From: Pleurocapsales cyanobacterium LEGE 06147
Lineage (GTDB): Bacteria > Cyanobacteriota > Cyanobacteriia > Cyanobacteriales > Xenococcaceae
Length of the DNA stretch: 42,198 nucleotides
Direction of reading: 5' to 3'
Assembly: GCA_015207585.1 (NCBI GenBank)
Contig: JADEWQ010000046.1
Span: forward strand, 1-42,198
Part shown: positions 1,432-42,198 of the stretch, in pieces
How the letters are laid out: the number at the start of each line of letters is the position of its first letter
Numbering within the stretch: the stretch's first letter is position 1
Notes under the pieces: generated by a model
What the model was told of the DNA's origin: nothing
What the model saw: the letters and a program-made list of their open reading frames with translations, nothing else
The model's database searches: none
Position numbers and translations under genes: made by a program

Positions 1432-1490
1432 CAGAAAAACTTGAGTTGGAGCAAATTTCTCGAACTCACAACCGAAGAATTTTTTCAAGC

Positions 1491-3185
1491 ATGGGCAACA
1501 CTGACCTACCTCTACCTCTTTGGCTGTTCTATCGTCTTTCTGGAGCATTTCTAAGTCTAATTCTTTTAACTGCTCCTACTGTAGTTTTAGCTCACGCCGG
1601 ACATGGGGATGAATTTCAAGGCTCGAACGCCACTGGGGAAACTCTCGATTCTGTTCGAGTTGACGCAGAAACTGTCGAACGTCTGGGGATTACAGTCGAA
1701 CCCGTTACCAAAAAACAGCTCGATGCGATCATTAAAACCACCGGACAGATTGAAACGCTGCCTAGCAGACAAGTAGAAGTAACTACGCCCGTTGAAGGGG
1801 CAAAAGTCGTAGAACTTCTAGTCGAACCGGGAGACAAAGTAGAATCGGGTCAACCCGTCGCTGTCCTTTATAGTCCTCAGTTAGTAGAACTGCGCGTTAA
1901 CTCTCAGGAAAAAAGGGCAGAAGCAGAGGCAGATTTACAGCAGGCACGGGCAGATTTAGAGCTAGCCCGACAAAATTACGAAAAATTTTCCCAAATAGCC
2001 ACCGATGAGATAGCGCAAGCACGAAGTCAGCTAGCCTTTGCCCGGGAAAAGTATGAAAAGGACAAGCAGTTAGCCGATTCTGGAGCTTTGCCCCAGCGCG
2101 ATGCTTTAGAGTCCGAAACTCAGTACAAAGAGGCACAAGCCAACCTTACTAAAGCTTTGAGCCGTAGGGAAGTAATCGATGCCGAAGCCCAACTCAAACG
2201 CGCTCGGGCGGCAGTAGAAGTAGCCCAATCGCGCCTGCAACTGAGCGATTCGGTTTATCAAACTCGACTGGCACAACTAGGAACTCGCGCTAATGCTAAG
2301 GGATTAGTCACAATAACTGCACCAATTTCTGGTAGAGTCGCTGACAGAGAAGTTACCCTCGGACAGTCATTTCAAGATGCGGGTGGCAAGCTGATGACAA
2401 TTGTCAACGACAGTCGCGTTTATACTACGGCTAATATTTATGAAAAAGATTTGAATAAAATAAGAATCGGTCAACGAGTTAGCCTGAGATTAGTTTCCGT
2501 ACCAAATAGCACTTTTAGCGGACAAATTACCATCATTGGTTCTGTCGTACAAGGCGAGACGCAAGTAGTCCCCGTGAAAGCAGAAATCGAAAACTCGGGT
2601 GGACTTCTCAAACCGGGGATGTTTGCCGAACTAGAAGTACTAACCGATCGGACGGCTACTCCAATTTTGGCAATTCCCAACTCCGCAGTTGTTGAAGCTA
2701 ATGGCAAGCAATTAATTTATCTTCAAAATGGTAATGTTTTTCAATCCGTTGAAGTTACATTAGGTCAAACTGCTGGGAATTGGGTTGAAGTCAAAAGCGG
2801 TCTATTTGAAGGGGATGCGATCGTTACTCAACGCGCGCCGCAACTTTACGCACAATCTTTGCGAGGGGAAAATCAATCTCCCGCCGAGGAACATCATGTC
2901 GAACGCAGTCAAGAAACTACTAGGCAGACAACGGAGACAAAAACAATTAACTTCCCAATTCCTTGGTGGATGGGAGCAACAGGAGGAGCAGCCCTATTTG
3001 GGGCAGCTTTCGTGACAGGTGCTTTTTGGTCGAGTCGTCGGACTTCTTCTCGTTTGGGAAGAAGGAGTAATTCAGAGTCCGAAGGGTTCGTTTCTGATAT
3101 AGAGGACGACCTCGATAATCACAAACAGACAACTCGGTCTGGCGCGATCGCTAGGGCGAAAGATCTCGAAGAACCTCGCTATTAA
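1491..3185 (+). CDS. RND efflux periplasmic adaptor (CusB/CzcB/HlyD family)
   Basis: Periplasmic adaptor of a tripartite heavy-metal exporter, linking an RND pump to an outer-membrane channel. The ATG at 1491 is preferred because a hydrophobic signal segment ending TVVLA follows it; an in-frame TTG at 1446 would only add 15 polar residues. A histidine-rich stretch (HAGHGDE) follows the signal. Two lipoyl half-motifs (TTPVEGAKVVELLVEPGD and TAPISGRVADREV) flank a long coiled coil rich in Ala, Glu and Gln, followed by a beta-barrel region. The extra C-terminal hydrophobic segment (WWMGATGGAALFGAAFV) and Arg-rich tail are less usual for classic CusB. The cognate pump starts at 4237. Metal specificity cannot be read from the sequence. 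Confidence 0.88.
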   Translation: MGNTDLPLPLWLFYRLSGAFLSLILLTAPTVVLAHAGHGDEFQGSNATGETLDSVRVDAETVERLGITVEPVTKKQLDAIIKTTGQIETLPSRQVEVTTPVEGAKVVELLVEPGDKVESGQPVAVLYSPQLVELRVNSQEKRAEAEADLQQARADLELARQNYEKFSQIATDEIAQARSQLAFAREKYEKDKQLADSGALPQRDALESETQYKEAQANLTKALSRREVIDAEAQLKRARAAVEVAQSRLQLSDSVYQTRLAQLGTRANAKGLVTITAPISGRVADREVTLGQSFQDAGGKLMTIVNDSRVYTTANIYEKDLNKIRIGQRVSLRLVSVPNSTFSGQITIIGSVVQGETQVVPVKAEIENSGGLLKPGMFAELEVLTDRTATPILAIPNSAVVEANGKQLIYLQNGNVFQSVEVTLGQTAGNWVEVKSGLFEGDAIVTQRAPQLYAQSLRGENQSPAEEHHVERSQETTRQTTETKTINFPIPWWMGATGGAALFGAAFVTGAFWSSRRTSSRLGRRSNSESEGFVSDIEDDLDNHKQTTRSGAIARAKDLEEPRY

Positions 3186-8351: not shown

Positions 8352-8444
8352 ACTCCTTGTAAACTTATCTTACTTACATATTGCTAAAATTTTTCAACTA
8401 TCTCTTTGAGCTACCTCAACTTTCAAATAGGAAAACTAAATAAA

Positions 8445-8903
8445 TTAGGGAAAAACAACTTTTGGCTCTGGTTTATGCTCGAGATAGAGATGAGCTGCAG
8501 ATTTCAAAACTAGTTCAGAGTAAAGAATTTTCTGAATCTCTAAACTGGGCGATCGATTAGCGAGTCTTCGATACGCCGCGATCTCACCTTCGAGACTAAA
8601 ATCCGTACCAGTTCGGTAATGGTCATAATCATGTACGGCTAGTAGAGCAAATCCGCAAAAGAGGTTAGGATAAATGTCACTACCATAGTTCTCCAATGAT
8701 ACCCAAAGGTGGTTTTGGGTGATGTCGTCAAACATGTCGGTCACAGTGTCATATTCCATGGCATTTGAAGCTTGAACGGCGAATGGAAGTTGCTGAAATT
8801 CAGACATCATCCAATTACAAAAGTCTTGTTTAGTTTGTTCGGAAATTTCAGCAGGCTCGCCTTCTAGATAAAGTTTGGCTAGAGTTTCTAGCTTAGAGGT
8901 CAT
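8445..8903 (-). CDS. conserved-looking hypothetical protein
   Basis: 152 residues, family not recognised. It is acidic, with a His/Asp/Tyr-rich centre (LLAVHDYDHYRTGTDFSLEGE) that could bind a ligand or metal, though this is only an observation. No signal peptide or membrane helices. It is on the same strand as the unknown gene 7893-8351, which has the same length; the two proteins do not obviously resemble each other. ATG start at 8903. Confidence 0.65.
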   Translation of the reverse strand: MTSKLETLAKLYLEGEPAEISEQTKQDFCNWMMSEFQQLPFAVQASNAMEYDTVTDMFDDITQNHLWVSLENYGSDIYPNLFCGFALLAVHDYDHYRTGTDFSLEGEIAAYRRLANRSPSLEIQKILYSELVLKSAAHLYLEHKPEPKVVFP

Positions 8904-9106: not shown

Positions 9107-9544
9107 CTACTTTAGGGAAGCCTTTAATTCGATCGCTACACTGCCTCGTAATGCATTAGAGACGGGACAAATTTGTTCAGCTTCCCGAGCGATTTGATTG
9201 AATGTTTCAGCATCAACGCCTGATACGTGACCCTGCGTTTCTAAATGAATCTTCGTGATTTTGAACCCTCCATCCTGTGATTCGATCGTACAGATGGCTT
9301 TCGTTTCGACCTGTTGGGGTTGGTATCCTTTTTCGTTTAGCGTGAGGGTGAGTGCCATACTGTAGCACGCGGCATGAGCGGCGGCAATCAGTTCTTCTGG
9401 ATTCGTTCCAGGTTGATTCTCAAACCGAGTGGCAAAGCTATAGGGAGTGCTGCTGAGCACACCACTTGTCGCACTAATTTGACCTTGACCCTCTTTCAAT
9501 GTGCCATTCCAAACAGCTGATGCGGTACGTTGTAGTACTGTCAT
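9107..9544 (-). CDS. osmC: OsmC-family peroxiredoxin
   Basis: 145 residues. OsmC proteins reduce organic hydroperoxides with two redox cysteines. Both are present: Cys60 in AAHAACYSMAL and Cys126 in AEQICPVSNAL. Arg40 (FATRFENQPGTNPEEL) matches the conserved active-site Arg, and Glu51 follows in NPEELI. The start MTVLQRTASAVW at 9544 is chosen because an AGGAGCGAGAG ribosome-binding region precedes it and it aligns with E. coli OsmC; an upstream in-frame TTG at 9562 overlaps that site. Probably thiol-dependent lipid-peroxide detoxification in the cytoplasm. Confidence 0.93.
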   Translation of the reverse strand: MTVLQRTASAVWNGTLKEGQGQISATSGVLSSTPYSFATRFENQPGTNPEELIAAAHAACYSMALTLTLNEKGYQPQQVETKAICTIESQDGGFKITKIHLETQGHVSGVDAETFNQIAREAEQICPVSNALRGSVAIELKASLK

Positions 9545-14495: not shown

Positions 14496-16022
14496 ATGCC
14501 GTTCGAGCAGGAATTAGACATTTATTTGAGATCTCGTTTTACCTTGATGATCTTGGTAACGCCAGAGGAAGAAAGGGCTTTACAAAGTGTTAAAGTGGTT
14601 TGCGATCGCGCCCAGCGTCCCTGTCTGAGTTGGGATGTTGTCGATGGGTTTCAGGCTTTAACTAATTGGCTAGGTTCGATTCCTGTTGCCCGCGATCCCC
14701 TTACTGCCCTAGAACAGGTAGATAAAGCCGACGGGGATGGCTTATTTATCCTCAAAGATTTTCACGACTGTTGGAGCAATTCTCAAGTTAAACGCAAACT
14801 CCGCAGCCTCGCCCAAAAACTGAAGTTGAATAAAAAGTCGATTTTAGTAACTGCCCCTTCGGCTAAGATTCCCGTGGAGTTAAAAGATGAAGCGGTAATA
14901 GTCGAATTTCCCTTACCCCAAACGGGGGAATTAGAAGCAGTGCTGCAAAGATTGACCCAAACCCCAGGAGTCAAAGTTAATCTGACGCGCTTGGGTAGAG
15001 AAAAATTGGTACAGGCAGCATTGGGATTGACCGCAGCCCAGGCACAACGGGTATTTGCTAAAGCAATTGTCAGTGATGGGGTATTAGATGACCGCGATAT
15101 TAATTTAGTTACGGAAGAAAAGAAACAAATTATTCGCGAGAGTCAGGCGTTGGAGTTTTTTGCCGTCCACGAAACACCAGGGGATGTGGGCGGTTTGGGA
15201 GTATTAAAGCAATGGTTGCGGATGCGGGAGCGGGCTTTTTCTCAAGAAGCCCGTAACTATGGGTTGCCCGCGCCCAAGGGTATTGCTTTGATCGGTATTC
15301 CTGGTACGGGTAAAAGTCTCACTGCCAAGATGATTGGGGGTTTATGGCAGCTACCCTTATTGCGGTTGGATGTAGGTTCGTTGTTTGGTTCTTTAGTAGG
15401 GGAATCGGAAGAGAGAACCCAGCGAGCGTTACAGCTAGCGGAAACTGTAGCTCCCTGTATCCTTTGGATCGACGAGATGGAGAAGGCGTTTGCTTTTGGT
15501 GGTAATGATGGGGGTGTGAGCAAGCGGGTATTTGGGACGATTCTTACCTGGATGCAGGAGAAGACAGCACCCTGTTTTGTAGTAGCTACCGCTAACGATA
15601 TTTCTAGTTTGCCCCCAGAGTTACTGCGTAAGGGACGCTTTGACGAAATTTTCTTCCTCGATTTACCCACCGCAGCAGAGCGACAGGAGATTTTCTCGGT
15701 GCATTTACGCAAGCGTCAACGGATGCCCCAAGATTTCGAGATTGCCCAGTTAGCTAGGCAGTCGGCGGGTTATGTGGGGGCGGAGATCGAGCAGGCGATT
15801 ATCGATGCGATGTATGTGGGTTTTAATGCCAATCGGGAGTTTACTACGGTTGATATTGCCGCAGCCCTCAAGCGCCAAGTACCTCTATCGGTTTCTTCTC
15901 AGGAGACGATTGAAGCGTTGCGTAATTGGTTGCGGGAAGGAAGGGCGCAGTCGGCTTCTTTCCAAGAGATTCGGGAAGCGGAACAGCAGTTTGTCCCCTT
16001 GCAGTTGGAGATTGGGAGGTAA
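14496..16022 (+). CDS. Ycf46-like AAA+ ATPase
   Basis: 508 residues. The N-terminal half ([20 protein letters not shown] and onward) matches the Ycf46 family of cyanobacteria and plastids. The AAA+ module carries Walker A GIPGTGKS at residues 267-274, Walker B ILWIDEME with Asp326 and Glu327, and a sensor/arginine-finger segment [16 protein letters not shown]. Such ATPases remodel or unfold proteins; the client of Ycf46 is not firmly known. It opens a stretch with HEAT/WD40, GrpE-like, Hsp70 and Ycf35/DUF2997 genes on the same strand, which suggests a shared chaperone task. ATG start at 14496 with AAGGAAGT upstream. Confidence 0.88.
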
Positions 16023-16182: not shown

Positions 16183-17049
16183 TTGAAAGGACTGGACTCA
16201 ATGTACCCAGAACAGTTAAAAAGTTACGAATCCAGGTTATACGAACCCCTCCCCATACCCATTATTGGTAAATGCCTACAGCGCAAAGCAGCCATGGCAT
16301 TAGCCCAAGATGGTTCGCCCGATGCGGTGAGAGTGTTGGCGCAAGGGGTGACTCGTCTTGAGGATGAGGAAATCCTAGCAATTGTGGTGGAGGCACTGAG
16401 TCAGCTTAAGAAGCAACTTTGTATCGATGCTGTTTGTAAGGTTTGGGCAACTACGCGCCATCAGAAGTTAACTAATTTGCTGGTTAAGCAAGGTTGGGTT
16501 GCTTCTGCGCCAGTTGAAGTTAAGGTATTGACTGCTTTGAAGACGGGACAGTTACGAGTAGTAACTGGGGGTGGAAAAGAAATAGTCGAGCCGTTGCTCG
16601 AGGCATTTAAAGATAGAGATTCTGAGATTGCCAGTCGAGCGAGTCAATGCGCGATCGCGCTTACTAATCCCGATGCTATAGATTATTTCTGTCAACAGTG
16701 GGCAACTACTAGGAATAAGCTATTAGAGCAAGTGTTATCTCAGGGTAAGTATGTAGCAAGACAACCAATTGAGGTAAGGGTTTTGACTGCGTTGAAGTTA
16801 GATCGCTCAGAAATTATTACCAATGGTCGTCAAGAAGTAGTCAAGCCATTACTGGAAGCGTTGAAAGATAAAGATTCTGAGATTGCCAGTCGAGCGAGTC
16901 AATGTGCGAGCCTATTTGAGAAGCCCGAATATCAAGAGTTTCTTTGTCGTTTAGTGATAGAACAAGACCATCCGATAGCCCGTCAGATTACCATTAAAGC
17001 CAAATGTGCTCCTCGCGAGCCAAGTCAAAGAGCATTTTTTATTTCCTAA
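16183..17049 (+). CDS. HEAT-repeat protein, N-terminal piece of a frameshifted HEAT/WD40 gene
   Basis: 288 residues as read. After a basic N-terminus, about six alpha-solenoid HEAT-like units follow; two are close copies (KDRDSEIASRASQCAIALTN and KDKDSEIASRASQCASLFEK). The natural protein should continue past residue 284: the text REPSQRA is normally followed by LFYFLTEQW, which here is in the -1 frame. One base missing in the T6 run at 17035-17040 explains this, and restoring it gives one gene 16183-17939 of 585 residues. The ATG at 16201 is also possible as start. Role unknown; HEAT/WD40 scaffolds usually present proteins to partners, here perhaps the neighbouring Hsp70 and AAA+ proteins. 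Confidence 0.75.
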   Translation: MKGLDSMYPEQLKSYESRLYEPLPIPIIGKCLQRKAAMALAQDGSPDAVRVLAQGVTRLEDEEILAIVVEALSQLKKQLCIDAVCKVWATTRHQKLTNLLVKQGWVASAPVEVKVLTALKTGQLRVVTGGGKEIVEPLLEAFKDRDSEIASRASQCAIALTNPDAIDYFCQQWATTRNKLLEQVLSQGKYVARQPIEVRVLTALKLDRSEIITNGRQEVVKPLLEALKDKDSEIASRASQCASLFEKPEYQEFLCRLVIEQDHPIARQITIKAKCAPREPSQRAFFIS

Positions 17050-17939
17050 CCGAACAATGGGACGAGTACGAAAATTTAGATTTTGAACATACTTTTTTAC
17101 AAACAGCTTTTGAACATGGTAGCGAGCAGCTACGCCAAAGAATAAGAGAACAGATCAGGAAAGCTGGTCGTGCTGAGTTGCTGAAAGTTCTTGCTGGTGG
17201 AAACCACAAGAAGCGATTGGGAGCAATGACCGATGCTGAATGGGAGACAACACTGGCAGTTCTCAATAGCACTCAGCAATGGGAGGAAATGTGGCGGTTG
17301 GCACAAAAAGCTCCTGCTATTTGGAGTAAGCAGTTATTGCAACAGTTAAAGCAAGCAGCATGGTTGCCAAAAGAGGAACAGGAACGAGTGGGTTTTGAAA
17401 GGTTAAAGCAGCTTGCCCAAAAGTGTTTAGAAAAGATACCGCCAATCGGAGGGTTAACGAGTTGTCAGGCTACTCTCACCGGACATACCGATTTGGTCGG
17501 GGGCGTAATCTTTAGCCCCGACGGACGACTGCTGGCTAGCTGTAGTGCGGACACAACCATCAGGCTGTGGCAAATGCCCGACGGCAAACCCCTCGCCACT
17601 CTCACCGGACACACCGATTCGGTCGGGGGCGTAACCTTTAGCCCCGACGGACGACTGCTGGCTAGCTCTAGTGAGGACACAACCATCAGGCTGTGGATGC
17701 TTAGGCTGTGGAAATTAGATTTACCTCGGTTAAACGGTCTACCTATCGGACAGTTAAGTCAGCAGGATAGAGAATTTATCCAAAAAGTATTATTGAATGA
17801 AGAGCTTACTGAAGAAGAACAACACTGGCTGGAATTCATGCAGGAATTGAGCAATTGGCATCGGCGATTCGATGTGGAAGTGGAAGATGCACCTCGATTA
17901 GTCAGTACTGGCGAGTTTGATATTGAAATTGAGGGGTAA
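17004..17939 (+). CDS. WD40-repeat protein, C-terminal piece of a frameshifted HEAT/WD40 gene
   Basis: 311 residues as read, but residues about 1-11 are probably not natural because homology starts at FYFLTEQWDEYENLDF (from 17037). A helical region follows (GAMTDAEWETTLAVL, EEMWRLAQKAPAIWS), then only two WD40 blades (TGHTDLVGGVIFSPDGRLLA and TGHTDSVGGVTFSPDGRLLA), each ending in TTIRLW. A C-terminal tail with LEFMQELSNWHRRFD and an acidic end follows. Two blades cannot close a propeller, which normally has seven, so blades were probably lost by recombination between near-identical units, or the protein is inactive. Confidence 0.7.
   Translation: MCSSRAKSKSIFYFLTEQWDEYENLDFEHTFLQTAFEHGSEQLRQRIREQIRKAGRAELLKVLAGGNHKKRLGAMTDAEWETTLAVLNSTQQWEEMWRLAQKAPAIWSKQLLQQLKQAAWLPKEEQERVGFERLKQLAQKCLEKIPPIGGLTSCQATLTGHTDLVGGVIFSPDGRLLASCSADTTIRLWQMPDGKPLATLTGHTDSVGGVTFSPDGRLLASSSEDTTIRLWMLRLWKLDLPRLNGLPIGQLSQQDREFIQKVLLNEELTEEEQHWLEFMQELSNWHRRFDVEVEDAPRLVSTGEFDIEIEG
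17472..17696 (+). repeat. tandem 126-bp WD40 unit, nearly identical copies
   Basis: ACTCTCACCGGACA starts at 17472 and 17598, and ATCAGGCTGTGG ends at 17570 and 17696, a period of 126 bp or 42 codons. The copies differ at only a few bases. A stray AGGCTGTGG at about 17702-17710 looks like the scar of a further unit lost by recombination. Confidence 0.85.
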
Positions 17940-18702: not shown

Positions 18703-19218
18703 ATGTTAAGTTTACTAAAAAAATTGTTTGGACATTCTCTAATTGTTCAACCACAAACAGACGAAAAATTACTAACTATAGAACAACAAACACAAACATT
18801 GCGCCTAGAACTAACCGAACGCGACCAATTAATCGACAAGCTCAAACAACAACTAGAACAGCAACGCACCAGCGAAAGCAACAATATTGCTACCGCCATC
18901 CACAACCAAATCGAACAACTACTAACTGATACTGCTGCTCCCGTCACCCAACTACTCACCCAGGCACATCTGGTCGAACAAGGCAAACCCGTACAAGCCA
19001 AAGACGTGCTGCTAGTAGCCAAACGCCTCATCCGCACCTTGGAAGACAACGGTTTAACCCTTACAGGCAAAGTAGGCGAAACCGTTCCCTTCGACTCCAA
19101 CCTCCACGAACCCTTGAGTACCAGTACTACCATTACCCCAGACACAGATGTAGTAGTGAGATTTGCAGGTGTTGCTTATCAGGACAAGGTGATTCGTAAG
19201 GCGGGAGTAGAGGTTTGA
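18703..19218 (+). CDS. GrpE-like protein (nucleotide exchange factor family)
   Basis: 171 residues. A coiled coil (residues about 22-55, TIEQQTQTLRLELTERDQLI and following Gln-rich helix) is followed by a beta head domain ending VGETVPFDSNLHEP and VVVRFAGVAYQDKVIRKAGV. That order, especially VPFDxxxHEPL and RxAGVEV, is the GrpE signature. Standard GrpE exchanges nucleotide on DnaK; this short divergent copy probably serves the Hsp70-family protein at 20857-22449. The helical part between (IHNQIEQLLTDTAAPVTQL) differs from standard GrpE. Its 3' end runs directly into an interspersed repeat. Confidence 0.75.
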   Translation: MLSLLKKLFGHSLIVQPQTDEKLLTIEQQTQTLRLELTERDQLIDKLKQQLEQQRTSESNNIATAIHNQIEQLLTDTAAPVTQLLTQAHLVEQGKPVQAKDVLLVAKRLIRTLEDNGLTLTGKVGETVPFDSNLHEPLSTSTTITPDTDVVVRFAGVAYQDKVIRKAGVEV

Positions 19219-19289
19219 TCCCCCCTAACCCCCCTTAATAAGGGGGGAATAATTAAGTCCCCCTTTGTAAGGGGGATTTAGGGGGATCT
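19217..19289. repeat. G/C-run palindromic interspersed repeat
   Basis: GATCCCCCCTAACCCCCC, AAGGGGGGAA, TCCCCCTTTGTAAGGGGGAT and TTAGGGGGATC form stems; same family as 16050-16169 and 19679-19732. It begins at the stop codon of the GrpE-like gene. Confidence 0.75.
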
Positions 19290-19316
19290 TCACAGTGTAA
19301 AACTCTTCAAATAATT

Positions 19317-19703
19317 ATGGGCGATCGCGATTGTAACAACTTTCATCTTCCCTATAATCCTGACTTAATAGCCAAAGCTAGGGAGTTACGGAAGAATATG
19401 ACTCCAGCCGAGAAAAAACTCTGGTATGACTATTTGAGAACTTTTAGGTTTAGAGTTTTAAGACAGCGAGCGATCGCCTTTTTTATTGTAGATTTTTATT
19501 GCGCTGCTTTGAAGTTGGTAATTGAGGTTGATGGAGATGTTCATTTTACCGAGGCGGGAAAAGCTTACGATGCAGAAAGAACTCGCATTCTGGAAGGTTA
19601 TGGTTTAAAAGTGATTCGGTTTACCAATGATGAAGTGTTACATAATTTTGATGCCGTTTGCGATCTGATTGAAAGAGAGATCCCCCTAAATCCCCCTTTG
19701 TAA
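19317..19703 (+). CDS. DUF559 domain protein (Vsr-like PD-(D/E)XK endonuclease fold)
   Basis: 128 residues. Signature ARELRKNMTPAEKKLWYDYL, then FRVLRQRAIAFFIVDFYC and KLVIEVDGDVHF, which supply the D...ExD residues of the nuclease fold. The end IRFTNDEVLHNFDAVCDLI is also typical. DUF559 proteins are widespread, often linked to repeats or mobile DNA, and their activity is unproven. The last residues (IPLNPPL) are encoded by the interspersed repeat at 19679 onwards, so the C-terminus and stop come from the repeat. It is flanked by copies of the same repeat on both sides. Confidence 0.85.
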   Translation: MGDRDCNNFHLPYNPDLIAKARELRKNMTPAEKKLWYDYLRTFRFRVLRQRAIAFFIVDFYCAALKLVIEVDGDVHFTEAGKAYDAERTRILEGYGLKVIRFTNDEVLHNFDAVCDLIEREIPLNPPL

Positions 19704-19757
19704 GGGGGACTTTGATTTATTCCCCCCTTGCTAAGGGTGCTGCCGCACCGCTCCGCG
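19679..19757. repeat. compound interspersed repeat
   Basis: The first part (ATCCCCCTAAATCCCCC to 19732) belongs to the G/C-run family; the second (GGTGCTGCCGCACCGCTCCG at 19736-19755) belongs to the family seen at 3206, 29774 and 31083. Two repeat families are joined here. Confidence 0.7.
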
Positions 19758-19758
19758 C

Positions 19759-20091
19759 CTATGGGGCGAGATCGCATTCGATAAAATAATCATAGGATTC
19801 TGTATCCAACTCGAAATTTAATAAATTCTGCAAATAATTCATCTGTTCGGCGGATTCTACTAAATAGCAATCATACATCGGATTTTCTGAATCAATCCCA
19901 AACAGTTTTTGTAGATGCTCTAAATTAACATTAGAAATAACTTTTTCTCCCACCAACTCATCCTCTTCTTTTTCAAACCAACGAAATACCCGATCTATTT
20001 TAGGTTTTGATATCTCCTGAGTCTGGTCTAAAACCGTATTATCGTGTTTTTTATTTGGTAATTTAGGATTAATTAAAAATTCAGAATTCAT
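19759..20091 (-). CDS. small acidic hypothetical protein
   Basis: 110 residues, family not recognised. Acidic, with charged segment RVFRWFEKEEDELVGEKVIS and Tyr/Asp-rich end (ENPMYDCYLVESAEQMNYLQ). The ATG overlaps the preceding antitoxin-like gene by four bases (ATGA at 20088-20091), so the two are probably translationally coupled. This placement behind two regulator-like genes would fit a third component of a toxin-antitoxin-like locus or an immunity protein, but nothing in the sequence proves this. Confidence 0.6.
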   Translation of the reverse strand: MNSEFLINPKLPNKKHDNTVLDQTQEISKPKIDRVFRWFEKEEDELVGEKVISNVNLEHLQKLFGIDSENPMYDCYLVESAEQMNYLQNLLNFELDTESYDYFIECDLAP

Positions 20092-20288
20092 TTACGCGAA
20101 ATCTTAGCTTCATTTGCCACTGTTTGCATCGCCCCAGTCGCATCCACTACATTTTTCAAAGCTAATAAAAAAGCTGACTTGTTCCCGTCAACAAGAGTTT
20201 CATCAAATGCTGCTTTTAAATATTGTGCTGCGTATTCAGGATTAGCTAGTCGCTTAAGTAAATCGGTTTGATAATCTTTAGTAGGCAT
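20088..20288 (-). CDS. truncated HigA-like antidote protein
   Basis: 66 residues. The text DLLKRLANPEYAAQYLKAAF and SAFLLALKNVVDATGAMQTV matches the N-terminal part of putative addiction-module antidote proteins, which are normally about 95-100 residues with a full helix-turn-helix. Here the protein ends at NEAKISRK, inside the HTH region, so the recognition helix is missing. The stop overlaps the start of the next gene (ATGA). Either a truncated antitoxin or a short form that needs a partner. The start at 20288 is 6 bp from the stop of the upstream XRE gene. Confidence 0.65.
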   Translation of the reverse strand: MPTKDYQTDLLKRLANPEYAAQYLKAAFDETLVDGNKSAFLLALKNVVDATGAMQTVANEAKISRK

Positions 20289-20294
20289 TATCGA

Positions 20295-20624
20295 TCAGTT
20301 CTCAATTACAGTAGTTATACCTGCTGACCGAGACTCTGGCTTAGGTTTGACAGAAATTTCTACATCACTACCTAAAGCGTTTAAAAATCGAAACAACCTT
20401 TCCGTTGAGAAACCTGTTAATCTACCTCTAATCAAAGCAGATACTTTGGGCTGATCTATTCCCAATATTTCTGCTGCTTCCATTTGAGTTAGATTTCTTG
20501 CTTCAATAATTTCGCCGATTTTACTAGCTAATTCAGCTTTAACTAGCATCTCGTCTGAATTAGGTAATTCCAAGTCGGCAAAAACATTACCACTACTTAC
20601 TTGAACCTTGATTTCTTCAGTCAT
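20295..20624 (-). CDS. XRE-family HTH regulator, HigA2-like
   Basis: 109 residues. The helix-turn-helix lies at about residues 40-75 (RNLTQMEAAEILGIDQPKVS followed by ALIRGRLTGFSTERLF). This matches the XRE proteins paired with HigB/RelE toxins. No toxin gene is found upstream, where one would be expected; the 230 bp between this gene and the Hsp70 gene hold a repeat. It leads an operon-like run of three minus-strand genes (20624 to 19759) with gaps of 6 bp and an overlap of 4 bp. Probably an autoregulator or an orphan antitoxin. Confidence 0.8.
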   Translation of the reverse strand: MTEEIKVQVSSGNVFADLELPNSDEMLVKAELASKIGEIIEARNLTQMEAAEILGIDQPKVSALIRGRLTGFSTERLFRFLNALGSDVEISVKPKPESRSAGITTVIEN

Positions 20625-20702
20625 TAATTTTCTTCTTTTGATTTGCTTTCAAAATAATTCTCTTGATATTAAAGAACTTCCGATCCAAACAACTGGCTTC
20701 TT

Positions 20703-20740
20703 GGTGCGCGTTCCCTTGCGTCTTTCGCCGACGCACCGCT
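20703..20740. repeat. hairpin-forming G/C-rich repeat
   Basis: GGTGCG at 20703 pairs with CGCACC near 20733-20738 around TTCCCTTGCGTCTTTC. It lies between the divergent XRE and Hsp70 genes and may have displaced a toxin gene. Confidence 0.45.
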
Positions 20741-20856
20741 TTTGTGATTGGTTAATACTCATTACTATAGTATGCTTTTTTTGGCATAAAATTTCAAGTT
20801 ACTTTTACTAAATTCCTGGGAACTCTAAAACAGAAGGCTTGTTAATAAAGTGAACT

Positions 20857-22449
20857 ATGCCAGGAAGACTAGCCATTGATTTCGGGACATCCAATACCGT
20901 AGTTGCCCTTTGGGACGAAATTCAACAGACGGGTATACCCTTTCATCTACCCGATTACGGTTATTTCTATCAACACGATCACGAAAAAATCTCTGTCATT
21001 CCTTCCCAAATTCACTACGCCAGCGACAAAAGAAGATGGCTGGGCTATCAAGTCGAACAGCAAAATCTTACCAAAAGCGATCGCACTTTTCGTTGGATGA
21101 AACGCTACATCTCCAACCGCAGTCCCGTACAGAGAAAGCTGGATGGCAAGCAAATTTCTCACTTCGATGCTGGAAAAGATTTCCTCTCCACCGTCTTACT
21201 CTTTGCCGCCACCGAACTCAATCTAGGGGATGAAGAAGTAGCCTTTACCGTCCCCGTCGAAGCCTTCGAGCATTACGAAAACTGGCTGGCAGATGTGGCA
21301 GAAGCTGCTGGCATTAGACGTTTCCGCTTAATCGACGAACCCTCTGCTGCTGCTTTGGGTTATGGGGCGCATATCCAACCAGGAGATGTCTATCTCATCT
21401 TTGACTTTGGTGGGGGAACCTTAGATGTAGCCGTAGTACTGATTGAAGAATCCGACCAATCCCAAGTAGGTCGCCGCTGTCGGGTGTTGGGTAAAGCTGG
21501 TTTGGATCTTGGCGGTGCTACTCTAGATCAGTGGCTGTTTCAAGACGTACTCAAACAAACCGGACGGAATGACCTCGATGAAGAAGTGCGCCAACTGAGT
21601 CGTTCCTTACTAGTAGAATGCGAACGAGCTAAGGTCAGATTATCTACCCACGAACGGGCTGATGTCACGGTAATGAATCCCAATACAGGGGCAGTCTTAT
21701 CGGCAGAGTTTAGCCGCAGCAAGTTTCAAGATTTACTCGATGACAACGAAGCTTTTACCCAAATCGACCAAACCATCCGTCGCGCCCTCAATTCCGCTCG
21801 CGAACGAGGCTATCAGGAAGATGATATTAAAGCAGTATTGCTAGTGGGTGGCAGCAGTCAAATTCCCGCTATTCAAAGCACGGTACGACGTATTTTTGGC
21901 AAAGAAAGAGTAATGCTCAACCGTCCCCTCGATGCGGTAGCCAGAGGCGCAGCAGCTTTTGTAGCGGGAGTTGATTTTTACGACCACATCCAACACGATT
22001 ACGCCATTCGCTTTCTCAACCGCCAAAAAGGAGAATACGATTATCGAATATTAGTCAAACGGGGTACTCCCTATCCCACAGCCGATTCCCTAGCACGACT
22101 AACAGTAAAAGCTTCTTATGACGGTCAAACCCAGTTAGGTTTAGCCATCTTTGAAATGGGGGAAAGCAGACAGCGCAATAATAGCGCACCCATGGAATTA
22201 GTTTTTGACCCCTCTGGCGCAGCAAGACTTTCAGCCGTTACTCCAGAGGAAGACGATAACCGCGCCCACTTCTGGATGAATGAAAGCAGTCCCACTTTTC
22301 TTCATGCTAATCCTCCAGCATCTCAAGGAGAATCCCGATTTCAGGTCGAGTTTTCCATTGACGGTAACAAACGATTACTGATGACTTCCCGCGACTTAAA
22401 AACTCAGAAAATCACTCACCGCGACTATCCAGTCGTCAAATTAACTTAG
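20857..22449 (+). CDS. Hsp70-family (DnaK-like) protein
   Basis: 530 residues, shorter than DnaK (about 640). The actin-like ATPase is complete: phosphate-1 loop AIDFGTSNTVVALWD (residues 5-19), phosphate-2 loop LIFDFGGGTLDVAVV and adenosine loop VLLVGGSSQIPAI. The C-terminal part (from about residue 390) is a shorter, divergent substrate-binding region without the helical lid or EEVD-like tail. Family knowledge: such atypical Hsp70s handle specialised clients. It stands with a GrpE-like protein upstream and a Ycf35/DUF2997 pair 55 bp downstream, so it is probably the motor of a dedicated module. ATG at 20857; a weak ribosome site precedes it. Confidence 0.88.
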   Translation: MPGRLAIDFGTSNTVVALWDEIQQTGIPFHLPDYGYFYQHDHEKISVIPSQIHYASDKRRWLGYQVEQQNLTKSDRTFRWMKRYISNRSPVQRKLDGKQISHFDAGKDFLSTVLLFAATELNLGDEEVAFTVPVEAFEHYENWLADVAEAAGIRRFRLIDEPSAAALGYGAHIQPGDVYLIFDFGGGTLDVAVVLIEESDQSQVGRRCRVLGKAGLDLGGATLDQWLFQDVLKQTGRNDLDEEVRQLSRSLLVECERAKVRLSTHERADVTVMNPNTGAVLSAEFSRSKFQDLLDDNEAFTQIDQTIRRALNSARERGYQEDDIKAVLLVGGSSQIPAIQSTVRRIFGKERVMLNRPLDAVARGAAAFVAGVDFYDHIQHDYAIRFLNRQKGEYDYRILVKRGTPYPTADSLARLTVKASYDGQTQLGLAIFEMGESRQRNNSAPMELVFDPSGAARLSAVTPEEDDNRAHFWMNESSPTFLHANPPASQGESRFQVEFSIDGNKRLLMTSRDLKTQKITHRDYPVVKLT

Positions 22450-22463
22450 AATTCATTTTGCCC

Positions 22464-22497
22464 TATTACTTACTTATTACCTATTACTTATTACTTC
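22464..22497 (+). repeat. short tandem repeat TATTACT(TA) type
   Basis: Repeated TATTACTTA/TTATTACC units fill the gap between the Hsp70 gene and the Ycf35 gene. Such short tandem repeats are common in cyanobacterial intergenic DNA, and here leave no clear ribosome-binding site before the ATG at 22505. Confidence 0.6.
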
Positions 22498-22504
22498 TTC
22501 CCCC

Positions 22505-22888
22505 ATGTCCCACTTTACTAGCATCAAAACCCAAATAGTTGAAAAACAATATCTCAAACAAGCATTGTCGGATCTCGGTCATGTTTACCAAGAAGGTAAT
22601 GTCCAAATTCGCGGCTATCAAGGTATTCAAACTCCTGTAGCCATCAAAATCCTTACCAAAAATTCGGGCTATGACATTGGCTTTCGCCAGTCGGGTAATG
22701 CCTACGAAATCGTCGCCGACTGGTGGGGAATTAAAGATATTAAGCAAGAGCAATTTCTGCAACAAGTTTCTCAACGTTACGCCTACCATGCAGCCAAAGC
22801 CAAATTAGAAGAACAAGGTTTTTCTCTTGTCAGCGAAGAAAACCAAGAGGGAGAGCGAATTCATTTAGTGCTGAGACGTACAGTTTAG
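22505..22888 (+). CDS. Ycf35-like DUF1257 protein
   Basis: 127 residues. The opening SHFTSIKTQIVEKQYLKQAL, the centre NSGYDIGFRQSGNAYEIVAD and the end segment QRYAYHAAKAKLEEQGFSLV are the DUF1257 (Ycf35) signature, a small protein conserved in cyanobacteria and some plastids with unknown function. It is 55 bp after the Hsp70 gene and 16 bp before the DUF2997 gene, the usual partner of DUF1257. The link with an Hsp70 suggests a role in handling a particular protein substrate, but the job is unproven. Confidence 0.88.
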   Translation: MSHFTSIKTQIVEKQYLKQALSDLGHVYQEGNVQIRGYQGIQTPVAIKILTKNSGYDIGFRQSGNAYEIVADWWGIKDIKQEQFLQQVSQRYAYHAAKAKLEEQGFSLVSEENQEGERIHLVLRRTV

Positions 22889-22904
22889 TCAAGGATAATT
22901 AACG

Positions 22905-23111
22905 ATGGAACTTCAAGAAATCGACGTATTTATCGAAAAAGACGGACAGGTAAAGATTGAGATACGAGGAGTCAAAGGAATGTCCTGTCTGGATTTGACC
23001 AAAGATTTAGAAGCGGTTTTGGGCGATCGAATTGCAGCACGCGAGATGACCCCCGAGGCTGATGAGGTAGGACAAGAGCAGGTTCAACAACAGCAATGGC
23101 AATGGGGATGA
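22905..23111 (+). CDS. DUF2997 protein
   Basis: 68 residues. Opening ELQEIDVFIEKDGQVKIEIR and the segment KGMSCLDLTKDLEAVLGD match DUF2997, a short protein nearly always next to DUF1257. The Cys at the SCLDLT position is typical. A Gln-rich tail (EQVQQQQWQWG) extends it. It probably acts together with the Ycf35 protein 16 bp upstream in the same operon. Function unknown. Confidence 0.85.
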   Translation: MELQEIDVFIEKDGQVKIEIRGVKGMSCLDLTKDLEAVLGDRIAAREMTPEADEVGQEQVQQQQWQWG

Positions 23112-23314
23112 ATGAGAAATTATGTTTTATTTGGCGATCGCCTGATGTTCGGGAAAATGTTTGGCTAGTCGATCTTTGACATCTTTTTAAAATGACGGAC
23201 ATAAAGATCGCGAATCTCGTCTTTGGTGTAATCGGTTAGTAGCGCGCTCTTGACACTCTCACGGCTTCGCTTAATACTAGAAAATTTAATGAGCGATCGT
23301 TATGCTTATTCCAA

Positions 23315-37449: not shown

Positions 37450-37804
37450 TTATAACTCCTGAATATCCATTCGTCGGATCAAACCATTCTCGATAGTGTA
37501 AACGTGCCGAACCATTCGATCCACCATCAAGTTTTCATCCAAATCTTGGACCACTTGATGAACATCGACCACTATTTGCCCATTCTCATCAGATTGAAAT
37601 CCTTGAGGTTCAACATGGGGATCGATCGAGTTCCACTGGCAAGTCCAATAATCGCGTACTGCCTCACGTCCGCGAACGTACCTGCCTTCCATCCCATTTG
37701 CCCACGCACGTCAGGGTGCATTACCGTACCGCGAGGACGGTATTAGTATCACGGGCGTTAAAAGCAGCATATGCTTTTGTGAGTAAATCCTGTTGTGTTT
37801 TCAT
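37450..37804 (-). pseudogene. SnoaL-like protein with two frameshifts
   Basis: An ATG at 37804 starts KTQQDLLTKAYAAFNARDTN, TVLA follows, then HPDV in a second frame, then RAWANGMEGRYVRGREAVRD and YWTCQWNSIDPHVEPQ in a third, with the frame running to the stop at 37450. The joined text matches NTF2/SnoaL proteins of about 118 residues (ARDxxTVLAxxHPDVxWANGMEGxYVxGREAVRDYW). Both lesions are small, so the gene died recently or suffered two sequencing errors. Confidence 0.75.
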
Positions 37805-37979
37805 CAGTTTAATTCGCTCTATAGGCTGTCGCGTGATACCTATTTACTTTCCAATCGTAGTAGATGAAGTGGGATATGACTACAAAGTCCACATTTTGCT
37901 AATCGAGAAGGAGATTATCTGTGAGTGGCTTCGATTGCACAAACCAACTGCGATAGCGATCGCTGCAATGTTAAATTCA

Positions 37980-38414
37980 TCACCAATCAGTCGCTAATTC
38001 TTGAATCCTCATTTTGGCTTCTGCAAGGAACCCCTTGAACCCTTTGATATCAACTGCAAACGTACGTCTGGGACGGACGATACGATCGATGTAGGATTTG
38101 AGCACAGCCGGAATGCTGAAGTTATACATTGAGGTGGATATAACGTAGCGCTCGGCAGCCAAAAATTCATCAATCAATTCGTCTGAAAGTGCGATCGTCT
38201 CTGCCAGTTCTGGCGTGTATTGATCTGGGGGCGTGAACTTTGCCTTCACCCACGTTGCATCAATGTAAGGCACGGGATTCAGCCCTAAATCTCTGTGGAT
38301 GATTTGTGTTTCAGGATGATAGTTGCTCCATTTTTCAACAAATTCTCGCGCCAGCATCCGCGAGTGAGAGTGTTCGAGCCGAGGGCTAGTATCGATCTGT
38401 AAAATGTGAACCAT
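37980..38414 (-). pseudogene. azoR: FMN-dependent NADH-azoreductase, C-terminally truncated
   Basis: 144 residues against about 200. Opening VHILQIDTSPRLEHSHSRML and the flavin segment AERYVISTSMYNFSIPAVLK then SYIDRIVRPRRTFAVDIKGF are unmistakable AzoR. After FKGF the expected GxxxxIxxxRGGxY region is missing and LAEAKMRIQELATDW with a stop follows, so the second part of the FMN and dimer surface is gone. Probably inactive. The start (ATG 38414) is intact. Its 3' end lies at noncoding DNA 37805-37979. Confidence 0.8.
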
Positions 38415-38447
38415 ACAATCACCTTCTTGATTAGGTTATGTTGAATT

Positions 38448-38774
38448 TCATTGCCTAGTAACGTCACATTTCCTCAGCTGTTGCACGGAAGCTTGATTAC
38501 TGGCATACTGAGCGTAATCCTGAATGTAAACTTCGGGAGGCTGAGCAGTTGCTCGAACAGCGGGATGTTGCTGCATTATCCCCAACCATTCTTTTAATCG
38601 ATCGCATTCTGTTGGCAGCGCGTTGCCCCGATAATATTCCAGGGCTATCCATCGTTCAAACCAAGGATAGAAGGACAAATCGACTAGACTCAGGGAATCA
38701 CCTAACCAGTAGGAACCAGCCCTCGATAACTGACAAAATCCTTCGTTTTCCATAAACAACAAGTGTTGAGACAT
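38448..38774 (-). pseudogene. glutathione S-transferase, thioredoxin domain deleted
   Basis: 108 residues that correspond only to the C-terminal helical domain: LLFMENEGFCQLSRAGSYWL, then GDSLSLVDLSFYPWFERWIA and LEYYRG. The N-terminal thioredoxin-like glutathione-binding domain (about 80 residues) is absent. The start ATG at 38774 is well placed with AAGGAGG ten bases upstream, so an internal deletion fused the original start to the C-terminal half in frame. The product may be made but should not bind glutathione. It lies directly downstream of a truncated EamA gene. Confidence 0.75.
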
Positions 38775-38791
38775 AAACTATCCCTCCTTTA

Positions 38792-39190
38792 TCAACTTTG
38801 TGTTTCTTTTGCGGTTTGAAACTGCATCCAGGTAATTGCTACAACAATTAGAAATCCACCAACAATCTGCATCAGGTTCAGGGTTTGACCGAAGAACCAA
38901 ACCCATGCCAGTACGCCCGCTACGACAGGTTCCAGCGTGGCAGCGATCGCCGCTCGTTCTGCTTGAACTCTTTGAATACACCAGAAAAACAGCAGATAGG
39001 GCAGCAAATTGCCAGCGAAGCCAACATAGAAAACATTCGGGATATTCTCCGGTGCAAGGAGTATCTGGAGGATTCCCTGAGTCAACTGATAGGCGAGCCA
39101 AAATAAGCTGGCGATGGCAAACACCTTCAACATCACGCCAATCGTTTCCTTTGTTGCGCTCACCTGCTCGCTCAGCACGATGTAGGCAGC
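38792..39190 (-). pseudogene. EamA/DMT-family transporter, C-terminal third
   Basis: The frame from about 39190 reads AIAAYIVLSEQVSATKETIG and continues as SLFWLAYQLTQGILQILLAP, VFYVGFAGNLLPYLLFFWCI and AAIAATLEPVVAGVLAWVWF, then a last helix (IVGGFLIVVAITWMQFQ). This is the second EamA repeat of a 10-helix drug/metabolite transporter. The first repeat and start are gone, and an in-frame stop stands just before AIAAY. The best remaining start (GTG or ATG near 39175) makes about four helices. Inactive in all likelihood. Confidence 0.75.
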
Positions 39191-39433
39191 AATGGCTCAT
39201 GGGATTGAACGTCTTTTCCCTCCTATTTCAGCTATCTTTTTACCTGCTCTCGAGTGAGTTTTCGCGCTACCGAGACTCTCAACCGTCTGTACCAAAGCAG
39301 TTATGGGTTAGGTAGCTGACAAATATAAACACAGCAATCATGTTAAGAACTCTAAAACTAGCTGATTGAATTTTTATGGATGCTCGATCGGGCACCAATA
39401 ACTACACTCTTCAATGTTCGTCAACACTAACCT
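39191..39433. other. intergenic region
   Basis: No coding frame, RNA gene or repeat was recognised between the EamA relic and the SDR relic. Confidence 0.45.
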
Positions 39434-40923: not shown

Positions 40924-41283
40924 CTAGATTAGCCCAGATCCTTTGTGTCGCCAGTCATGTTCCATGGTCAATTTACCTTCTTCATCTTCCGACAAATCTT
41001 GAAGTAGGTGAAGGCGTTCGGCTTTCCGTTCTAGCTCTTGTTCTTTCAAATCTCCAGGTTCAGAGATGTACATTTCCGGCTCAACTGCGTAGTTATTAAT
41101 CAGTCCTTCTTGGTCGATGGTGTAGCCATCTCGGATGTGAATATGTTCTCGATCGGCAGGGTTATCATGCTCGATATGACCGAAATTCGCACCTTCTCTG
41201 GCTTCTCGCGCTATAGTTTCGGCTGGAATAAGATGCGGATCGTAGTGAGGAATACTTGGAGTGGAATCACTTTGAGCTTTCAT
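40924..41283 (-). CDS. small hydrophilic hypothetical protein
   Basis: 119 residues, family not recognised. Very rich in Glu, His, Asp and Arg, with no membrane segment or signal. Opening STPSIPHYDPHLIPAETIAR; centre GANFGHIEHDNPADREHIHI; the helical end segment KEQELERKAERLHLLQDLSE may be a coiled coil. It appears intact, with AAGGAGGAACCG upstream of the ATG at 41283. Upstream of the cluster-end peptide gene, but separated by a terminator. Confidence 0.65.
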   Translation of the reverse strand: MKAQSDSTPSIPHYDPHLIPAETIAREAREGANFGHIEHDNPADREHIHIRDGYTIDQEGLINNYAVEPEMYISEPGDLKEQELERKAERLHLLQDLSEDEEGKLTMEHDWRHKGSGLI

Positions 41284-41370: not shown

Positions 41371-41398
41371 ATAAAAACCTCGGCACTGTAACCGAGGT
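41371..41398 (-). terminator. intrinsic terminator of the double-glycine peptide gene
   Basis: On the minus strand ACCTCGG pairs with CCGAGGT (41392-41398 and 41377-41383) around an 8-base loop, followed by TTTTTAT. It lies about 70 bp after the stop of the peptide gene at 41467. Confidence 0.75.
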
Positions 41399-41466
41399 CA
41401 ATGCAAGACGAGAAACTTTCAAAATCTTAATTAACTAGTCTTTTAGCCGAGAACCACTTTTGTCAA

Positions 41467-41706
41467 TCAACCAGCAAACCCAGTGTCGACAGAATTAACA
41501 CGGACTCCATCGATATAAACATCTATTGGATCTCCGTCAGATGTGATGAGCTTTGGAAGAGGCTCGGAGAAAGTTTGAAATTGATTGAGATTGATCCGCC
41601 CTCCCGAAATTGCTGCAGCGGATTCATCTGAAAGTTCTTCTATTAAAGAAAGTTCACTAATTTTCAGAGAATTGATTGTTTTCGTAGTACTATCTTTTTG
41701 CATCAT
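41467..41706 (-). CDS. double-glycine leader peptide, possible RiPP or exported small peptide
   Basis: 79 residues. The leader (residues 1-36) ends with IEELSDESAAAISGG: a Glu/Leu-rich helix with ELSDE and a final Gly-Gly, the classic cleavage site of C39-peptidase ABC exporters. The core (37-79) reads RINLNQFQTFSEPLPKLITS and continues to VDTGFAG. No Cys and only few Ser/Thr are present, so a lanthipeptide is unlikely; a plain bacteriocin-like or signalling peptide, or another modification class, is possible. No exporter or modification enzyme lies within the window. GGAG precedes the ATG at 41706; a terminator follows at 41371-41398. Confidence 0.7.
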   Translation of the reverse strand: MMQKDSTTKTINSLKISELSLIEELSDESAAAISGGRINLNQFQTFSEPLPKLITSDGDPIDVYIDGVRVNSVDTGFAG

Positions 41707-42198
41707 CTACAACTCCTATAGATTATAAGTTTGGTTGTGTGTTTTTTGAACTAACAACTCATTCTTAAGAGCCTTAGTCTCTTAAAGATGGCATTCGTGT
41801 GGTCTTTCTTAACAAGGAGAGCTGCAGTTCAAATTTGGAGCTAACATCCAGAGGAGCAAGTTGCTTTTCTGCTCTCTCTGCCTGATTAGGTTTATATAGA
41901 TTGGATTTAGAAAATTTATGCAAGTTAAGTTGGTTTTGCGGTCTTTCTGCCTGTACAAAGCAACAGTGAAATTACCATTGGCATGATTGCCTTTATCATT
42001 ATCGACTAGTACAATAGTACTTAAGCCATCACAGTAAATACTTAATTAGTTATTATTAAGATGAAGAAAAGTTTAGCTCCGTGAGCGGGAAGCCTCACGC
42101 TTATCCGCTAGGAAAGCGTTGAGAGAGGTTCGCTCCGCGTCGAGAGCGAACTTCTCACTAAGTGCCCAACATCTGTGATAATAGAGCAAATAAGTTTT
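41707..42198. other. peptide-gene upstream region with end-of-window palindrome
   Basis: 492 bp without a gene. The first ~350 bp are presumably the peptide promoter region. GAGAGGTTCGCTC (42123-42135) pairs with GAGCGAACTTCTC (42144-42156) with one wobble around CGCGTCGA, a strong hairpin of the interspersed repeat type. TCTTAAGAG and CTCTTAAAGA near 41763-41788 form a weaker hairpin. Confidence 0.5.

What the first reader, a model, noticed from the sequence alone, without database searches (positions are those of the whole stretch)
41467..41706. Orphan double-glycine peptide with its own terminator
The leader ends IEELSDESAAAISGG followed by a 43-residue core without cysteine, ending in VDTGFAG. 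Leader, ribosome site and terminator make a complete transcription unit. Many cyanobacteria have such peptides with unknown products.
Basis: partly seen in the sequence, partly recalled or inferred. Interest (0 to 1): 0.55.

Follow-up and report, generated by a model that had tools for sequence, protein, structure and literature searches.

The report
Orphan cyanobacterial secreted-peptide precursor gene
A small gene, probably from a cyanobacterium, encodes a peptide whose export tag resembles the tags of two peptides encoded beside a peptide-exporting pump elsewhere in the same genome, so it is most likely cut and secreted by that pump; this is an ordinary kind of gene in cyanobacteria, although no relative of its mature part was found in the searches made.

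Summary
Confirmed. The 79-codon gene at 41467-41706 (minus strand) has a 36-residue leader ending ISGG, a cysteine-free acidic 43-residue core, a GGAG ribosome site and a terminator-like hairpin 67 nt past the stop. Searching the whole genome answers it instead: the leader matches two precursors on contig C52 (15/37 and 14/37 residues; 37 and 36 of 48 nt over its last 16 codons), which lie beside a C39-peptidase ABC exporter and a divergent HlyD gene. The same cassette with the same leader type occurs in two related genomes. The core has no convincing relative in any collection searched, and the gene is absent in front of the neighbouring Psb34-like gene in the 14 related loci inspected. Best reading: an accessory substrate, encoded away from its exporter, of the C52 exporter (Wang group III-like), cleaved after GG and secreted unmodified or little modified. 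What the secreted core does is unknown: matrix or signal peptide (EbfG-like) and bacteriocin are both open. New member of a known kind.

The parts
41599..41706 (-). Leader peptide codons 1-36, ending ...IEELSDESAAAISGG; predicted C39 cleavage after Gly36
   Evidence: matches leaders of two C52 precursors
41467..41598 (-). Core peptide codons 37-79 plus stop (43 aa, 4.7 kDa, pI about 4.2, no Cys)
   Evidence: no convincing homologue
41713..41716 (-). Ribosome-binding site GGAG
   Evidence: Read by eye from the sequence
41376..41399 (-). Intrinsic-terminator-like hairpin, followed by a T-rich tail
41722..41750 (-). Promoter-like TTCAAA-17-TATAAT; doubtful
   Evidence: number of such sites not above chance
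42072..42198 (.). Repeat of about 127 nt shared at 98-100% with 11 other contigs, at or within 55 nt of their ends; assembly break, so the upstream neighbour is unknown. Not part of the system
40924..41283 (-). Downstream gene, 119 aa, partial match to Psb34 (33.3 bits, cut-off 45); found in relatives without the peptide gene in front; not thought to belong

Best explanation
The gene encodes a secreted-peptide precursor that works in trans with a C39-peptidase ABC exporter encoded elsewhere in the genome. The ribosome makes a 79-residue precursor; its leader is recognised by the C39 domain of the short-type exporter on contig C52 (L005 5749-8001; the related exporter beside LanM on C148 is second choice), cut after Gly36, and the 43-residue acidic core leaves the cell through the ABC exporter, the HlyD adaptor and a TolC-type outer channel. 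The core has no Cys, so it cannot form lanthionine rings; it is probably exported unmodified or little modified. Shown: the gene, the leader match, the exporter cassette. Inferred: recognition, cleavage, export, the outer channel (not searched for) and any activity. Outside the cell it is most likely a lineage-specific surface, matrix or signal peptide, or a bacteriocin; sequence does not decide.
For: Leader matches in the own genome: DNA E 7.7e-6 at two places on C52; BLASTP 15/37 and 14/37 identities, E 4e-6 and 1e-5 for single comparisons; 37 and 36 of 48 nt identical over the last 16 leader codons, while the core shows no DNA similarity above shuffles (133/500 and 81/500 reach it); 0 of 2000 shuffled leaders score as high. 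C52 carries a 750-aa protein with Peptidase_C39, ABC_membrane and ABC_tran domains and a divergent 452-aa HlyD. In 2 further genomes, G021 and G011, a precursor with this leader stands beside a relative of the same exporter (80% over 286 residues, cut by the contig end; 82% over 719) and a divergent HlyD relative (67%, 56%). Precedent: EbfG1-4 of S. elongatus need the C39 protein PteB for efficient secretion, and peptides starting right after GG/GA were seen in the medium (PMC4997328, Results read); precursors distant from their clusters are mentioned in PMC3140520 (Discussion read).
Against: The leader has a 6-residue insertion relative to the C52 leaders. It also scores 53 (0 of 2000 shuffles) against the leader of the ATP-grasp-linked precursor on C148, against 63 and 55 for C52; 40 (2 of 2000) against the LanM-linked precursor and 26 (102 of 2000) against the C47 precursor. 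So C52 is favoured, not proven. Its upstream region lacks the 5' region that C52, G021 and G011 precursors share, so co-regulation is not supported. No orthologue of the whole precursor exists to show that the core is under selection. Two further leader hits under E 1e-3 (G026, G010) were not checked for an exporter nearby. No expression or export data.
Confidence: 0.72

Rival explanations
1. Substrate of a modification enzyme as well as of an exporter: a RiPP whose core is altered before export, for example by ester or amide rings made by the C148 ATP-grasp ligase (graspetide-like), then exported by the C148 C39 exporter.
For: The genome has an ATP-grasp peptide maturase-like gene (TIGR04187 E 1.6e-42, 145.8 bits, cut-off 350) directly after a GG precursor, and a LanM, on C148; leader score 53 against that precursor's leader. 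The core has Ser/Thr/Lys and Asp/Glu.
Against: No known peptide-modifying enzyme among the 29 window proteins scanned or the 6 C52 proteins scanned; leader closer to the C52 precursors; no Cys rules out lanthionine; the C148 core has two AIGEEGG segments that this core lacks.
Confidence: 0.1
2. Decaying relic: leader of a duplicated C52-type precursor whose original core was lost by recombination or frameshift, leaving a short unselected tail; not a functional product.
For: No orthologues; core unrelated to the C52 cores; gene near a multi-copy repeat; one reverse-complement frame of the core scores higher by codon use (5.1) than the forward frame (3.3).
Against: No trace of a C52-like core in any frame of the 300 nt spanning core and 3' region (tblastn at E up to 10, no hit); forward-frame codon use of the core is above the 95th percentile of off-frame pieces and between the 5th and 25th percentile of in-frame pieces; ribosome site and terminator-like hairpin intact. 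Very little conservation of cores is usual in such precursors (PMC3140520 abstract).
Confidence: 0.13
3. Chance ORF with a leader-like stretch.
For: Loose GG patterns are as frequent in shuffled sequence.
Against: DNA-level leader similarity to two precursors in the same genome; 0 of 2000 shuffles.
Confidence: 0.03

Closest known systems
Wang, Fewer and Sivonen (2011) cyanobacterial bacteriocin-type clusters, group III, and their double-glycine precursors (PMC3140520)
   Same: Short-type C39 ABC exporter (C39, membrane and ATPase domains only), HlyD, double-glycine precursors with very diverse cores; length within the reported 28-164 aa; precursors distant from clusters are mentioned
   Different: This precursor is not beside the exporter; its leader is of a specific type (M-x-x-K start, EE-x-S-x-E near GG); the group assignment is mine, by domain content, not by their tree
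EbfG1-4 with exporter PteB, Synechococcus elongatus PCC 7942 (PMC4997328, PMC9981879)
   Same: Small GG-motif proteins whose mature parts have no homologues in other cyanobacteria, secreted with the help of a C39 peptidase protein
   Different: ebfG1-4 are on one transcript, and their locus numbers put them beside pteB (inferred); EbfG sequences were not compared here; no phenotype is known here
NHLP / Nif11-like (N11P) precursor families
   Same: Double-glycine precursors of cyanobacteria
   Different: No NCBIfam or significant Pfam match; the long nitrile-hydratase-like or Nif11-like leader is missing (length of those leaders recalled)
CTB family bacteriocin (NF038167), mersacidin-type lanthipeptides (TIGR03898), graspetides
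   Same: GG-type leaders; lanthipeptide and ATP-grasp genes occur elsewhere in this genome
   Different: No model match to this precursor; no Cys; no maturase found in the window

Membership tests
Double-glycine peptides exported by C39-peptidase ABC transporters | Leader ending in GG/GA, related to leaders encoded beside a C39 exporter | tested here: met
Double-glycine peptides exported by C39-peptidase ABC transporters | C39 exporter present in the genome | tested here: met
   6 matches over cut-off; C52 exporter of 750 aa with C39, membrane and ATPase domains
Double-glycine peptides exported by C39-peptidase ABC transporters | Cleavage after GG and export of the core | not testable with these tools
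   Needs biochemistry or mass spectrometry
Wang group III cluster | Precursor located at a short-type C39 exporter plus HlyD | tested here: not met
   The gene lies on contig C26, the cassette on C52; only its leader relatives meet this. The 492 nt upstream of it end at an assembly break
Lanthipeptides | Cys in the core for lanthionine rings | tested here: not met
   0 Cys in the core
Graspetides | ATP-grasp ligase beside the precursor | tested here: not met
   None among 29 window proteins scanned; upstream side unreadable beyond 492 nt; the genome's ATP-grasp gene seen is on C148
NHLP, Nif11, CTB and other curated RiPP precursor models | Match to the curated profile | tested here: not met
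   No NCBIfam hit at E up to 10, none for the core alone; Pfam only one insignificant match, E 0.11
EbfG-like biofilm proteins | Required for biofilm; matrix or cell-surface location | not testable with these tools
   No phenotype data; EbfG sequences not compared

The most novel reading that the evidence does not exclude
A lineage-specific 'plug-in' cargo: the leader of the C52 exporter's own substrates has been joined to an unrelated core at a distant site with its own expression signals, so that one exporter secretes chemically different cores (long Leu/Pro/Gly-rich C52 peptides and this short acidic peptide) under separate control, with a new extracellular function.
Probability: 0.3. Interest if true: 0.45.

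Novelty: new member of a known kind. Interest (0 to 1): 0.3.

Why it matters
Hundreds of cyanobacterial GG precursors have no known product (PMC3140520, Discussion read). This one can be assigned to a probable exporter encoded elsewhere, by leader matching, which gives one clear experiment: does the C52 C39 domain cut it, and is the core in the medium. By itself it does not change the picture of these systems.

Tried and rejected
Whole-precursor homologues: none convincing. 60 relatives: own only, 1 of 60. 388 genomes of the class: own plus one E 0.005 match with two stop codons inside, rejected. Genome contigs: 1 of 208 pattern stretches, a planctomycete stretch reading KPTYAEPVKLTTADGDPIDVYG inside a 1088-aa frame without GG leader, taken as chance or convergence; it looks like an FG-GAP/VCBS repeat protein, my reading, not scanned. 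Plasmids: 1 weak hit, E 0.3. Phages: none. Viral contigs: none of 18 stretches. Last 27 residues of the core in 27 family genomes: own only.

I thought of DUF4397 or FG-GAP blades for the stretch DGDPIDVYIDG, from memory; Pfam listed neither for the core (only PF23786, E 0.037, 13.9 bits, cut-off 27), so dropped. AlphaFold2 on the single sequence: mean pLDDT 44.3, pTM 0.25, no usable fold; no fold search was made. Rfam at gathering scores: no family in the window. One own-genome leader hit at C75 (E 0.9) looks like a chance ORF.

The first alignment script loaded no sequence for the window gene (empty row); it was repeated correctly. The shuffle tests used typed leaders and do not depend on that.

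Rows left out; of 26 loci (L015-L040) my filter printed an ORF for 17; nine had none, and at least L018 and L035 of the 17 do not look like leader peptides; 15 of the 26 loci were inspected (own plus 14); the 11 others (L066-L071, L074-L078; mostly weaker, paralogue-like matches) were not given to the script. Of the 14, L057 and L063 had less than 1 kb upstream; only same-strand ORFs of at least 45 aa were listed, and a GG flag appeared for the own locus alone. Window scan: 25 of the 27 ORFs of at least 150 aa and 4 shorter ones were scanned; 15257-15712 and 38836-39315 were not.

Full report
The gene. The minus strand of 41467-41706 holds an ATG-started frame of 79 codons: a 36-residue leader ending IEELSDESAAAISGG and a 43-residue core RINLNQFQTFSEPLPKLITSDGDPIDVYIDGVRVNSVDTGFAG, with no Cys, computed mass 4710 Da, pI about 4.2. 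A GGAG site precedes the start. A hairpin with a T-rich tail follows the stop by 67 nt and appears in both predicted folds of that stretch, though the stretch as a whole is not unusually stable (z -1.02). The promoter-like site is doubtful: the transcript would start almost on the ribosome site, and such sites are not above chance in number. No call names the organism; that it is a cyanobacterium is inferred from the Psb34-like gene and from the types of C39 exporters.

Is it more than chance? A loose GG pattern is not (3 ORFs in the window; 0 to 6 in each of 30 shuffled windows). Homology is: a whole-genome DNA search with 401 bases around the gene found, besides itself, only two places, on contig C52 (79% and 78% identity over about 60 bases, E 7.7e-6 each), and both are leaders of double-glycine precursors. 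BLASTP gives 15/37 and 14/37 identities. Over the last 16 leader codons 37 and 36 of 48 bases agree; the cores do not resemble each other in DNA. None of 2000 shuffles of the leader, its final GG kept, reached its score against either C52 leader. By codon use the leader (6.8) and core (3.3) lie in the range of 238 in-frame 43-codon pieces (5th to 95th percentile -1.9 to 17.7) and above the 95th percentile (-2.0) of 476 off-frame pieces; against this, one reverse-complement frame of the core scores 5.1, and no control was made for reverse-complement frames.

The exporter. The window is the whole of contig C26, and its last about 127 bases recur at 98-100% identity in 11 further contigs, in nine at the very end and in two 55 nt from it: an assembly break at a multi-copy repeat. 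The genome has six C39 matches over the cut-off. On C52 the order is: 750-aa C39-ABC exporter and two precursors (109 and 100 aa) on one strand, and a divergent 452-aa HlyD. In two related genomes a precursor with the same leader type stands beside a relative of that exporter and a divergent HlyD relative (G021: exporter cut by the contig end, 80% over 286 residues, HlyD 67%; G011: exporter 82%, HlyD 56%). So this leader type goes with this exporter in the three cassettes looked at, and the window gene is the only further strong bearer of it in its own genome (the fourth hit has E 0.9). The window itself has an HlyD-type gene (1446-3185), but beside an AcrB-type RND pump gene, not a C39 exporter.

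How narrow is the leader? With a three-row leader profile that includes GG, 18 of 60 relatives (own included) match at E up to 1, but only 5 of 60 (own, G021, G011, G026, G010) below 1e-3. The ORFs that could be read carry very diverse cores (17 of 26 loci gave an ORF, not all of them leader peptides). The G026 and G010 loci were not checked for exporters. With a five-row profile that stops before GG, 4 of 388 class genomes match at E up to 0.1, and only the own genome's three places are strong (3.5e-13 or better; the other genomes 0.009 to 0.08). Those three are followed by SGG, but they had built the profile.

The other candidate exporter is on C148, 65% identical to C52's, in a region with a LanM, a mersacidin-type precursor (TIGR03898, E 1.2e-19, over cut-off) and, further on, a GG precursor directly before an ATP-grasp maturase-like gene. 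The window's leader scores 53 against that last precursor's leader, 40 against the mersacidin-type one and 26 against the C47 precursor, and 63 and 55 against C52's. C52 is therefore the better guess, not a certainty.

The core. No convincing relative in 60 relatives, 388 class genomes, genome contigs, plasmids, phages, viral contigs, NCBIfam and Pfam. AlphaFold2 on one sequence is uninformative. Lanthionine formation is excluded by the lack of Cys. No known peptide-modifying enzyme or C39 domain was listed for the 29 window proteins scanned; six of them had no Pfam match at the limits used.

Accessory gene. The gene downstream (119 aa, partial Psb34 match below cut-off) has a match in 19 of 26 genomes including the own one, some of them only weaker and paralogue-like. 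In the 14 other loci inspected, of 25 fetched, no GG peptide was flagged in front of it. The 5' region shared by the C52, G021 and G011 precursors is absent here, so this gene is probably controlled on its own.

Mechanism and comparison. The best reading is a precursor cut after Gly36 by a C39 exporter encoded elsewhere, core secreted. It would work like the EbfG/PteB pair of Synechococcus elongatus, where GG motifs and the C39 cysteine matter for secretion and biofilm (PMC4997328, abstract and Results read) and EbfG1-3 form amyloid (PMC9981879, passages seen). It belongs to the broad class of cyanobacterial double-glycine precursors of Wang et al. 2011 (PMC3140520, abstract, Results and Discussion read); it is not a member of a group III cluster in the strict sense, since it is not located at one. 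Whether the core is a bacteriocin, a matrix protein or a signal cannot be told from sequence. Four library searches were made; the other papers in them were seen as listings only. I did not search the literature for this particular peptide and make no claim that it is unreported.

Noticed in passing
L079 14019-14213 (+) and 14254-15171 (+) (G000 contig C148, about 22018-23170): A 64-aa GG precursor with two AIGEEGG segments directly before an ATP-grasp peptide maturase-like gene (TIGR04187 E 1.6e-42, below its cut-off): a possible graspetide cluster.
   Followed up: partly
L079 4535-13181 (+) (G000 contig C148): Mersacidin-type lanthipeptide precursor (TIGR03898), LanM-type protein with DUF4135, short C39 exporter and HlyD in a row.
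   Followed up: partly
L005 about 8422-8551 and 9297-9426 (-); L092 upstream of 1864 (-); L093 upstream of 9617 (+): Shared 5' region before the C52-type precursors in three genomes: CTGACAAAA, an AGAAAAG...CTTTTCTT inverted repeat and AGGAGATATAAACAA before the start codon; a possible operator or RNA hairpin.
   Followed up: partly
window 42072-42198: Contig-end repeat of about 127 nt present at or near the ends of 11 other contigs; identity of the element unknown.
   Followed up: partly
window 37450-39200: Short, apparently partial genes in a row on the minus strand (SnoaL-like, flavodoxin-like, GST C-terminal part), as if decaying.
   Followed up: no
L023 1441-1824 (+), L027 1453-1806 (+): GG leaders of similar type in relatives before larger cores (precursors of 117-127 aa) that look, from memory, like small beta/gamma-crystallin-type domains; not scanned.
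   Followed up: no
L005 4346-5509 (+): Two frames beside the C52 exporter that look, from memory, like pieces of a broken TnpB-type gene; not scanned.
   Followed up: no
window 16183-17939, 18703-22449: HEAT-repeat, WD40, GrpE-like and Hsp70-like proteins near an AAA ATPase, an unusual-looking chaperone-type neighbourhood.
   Followed up: no
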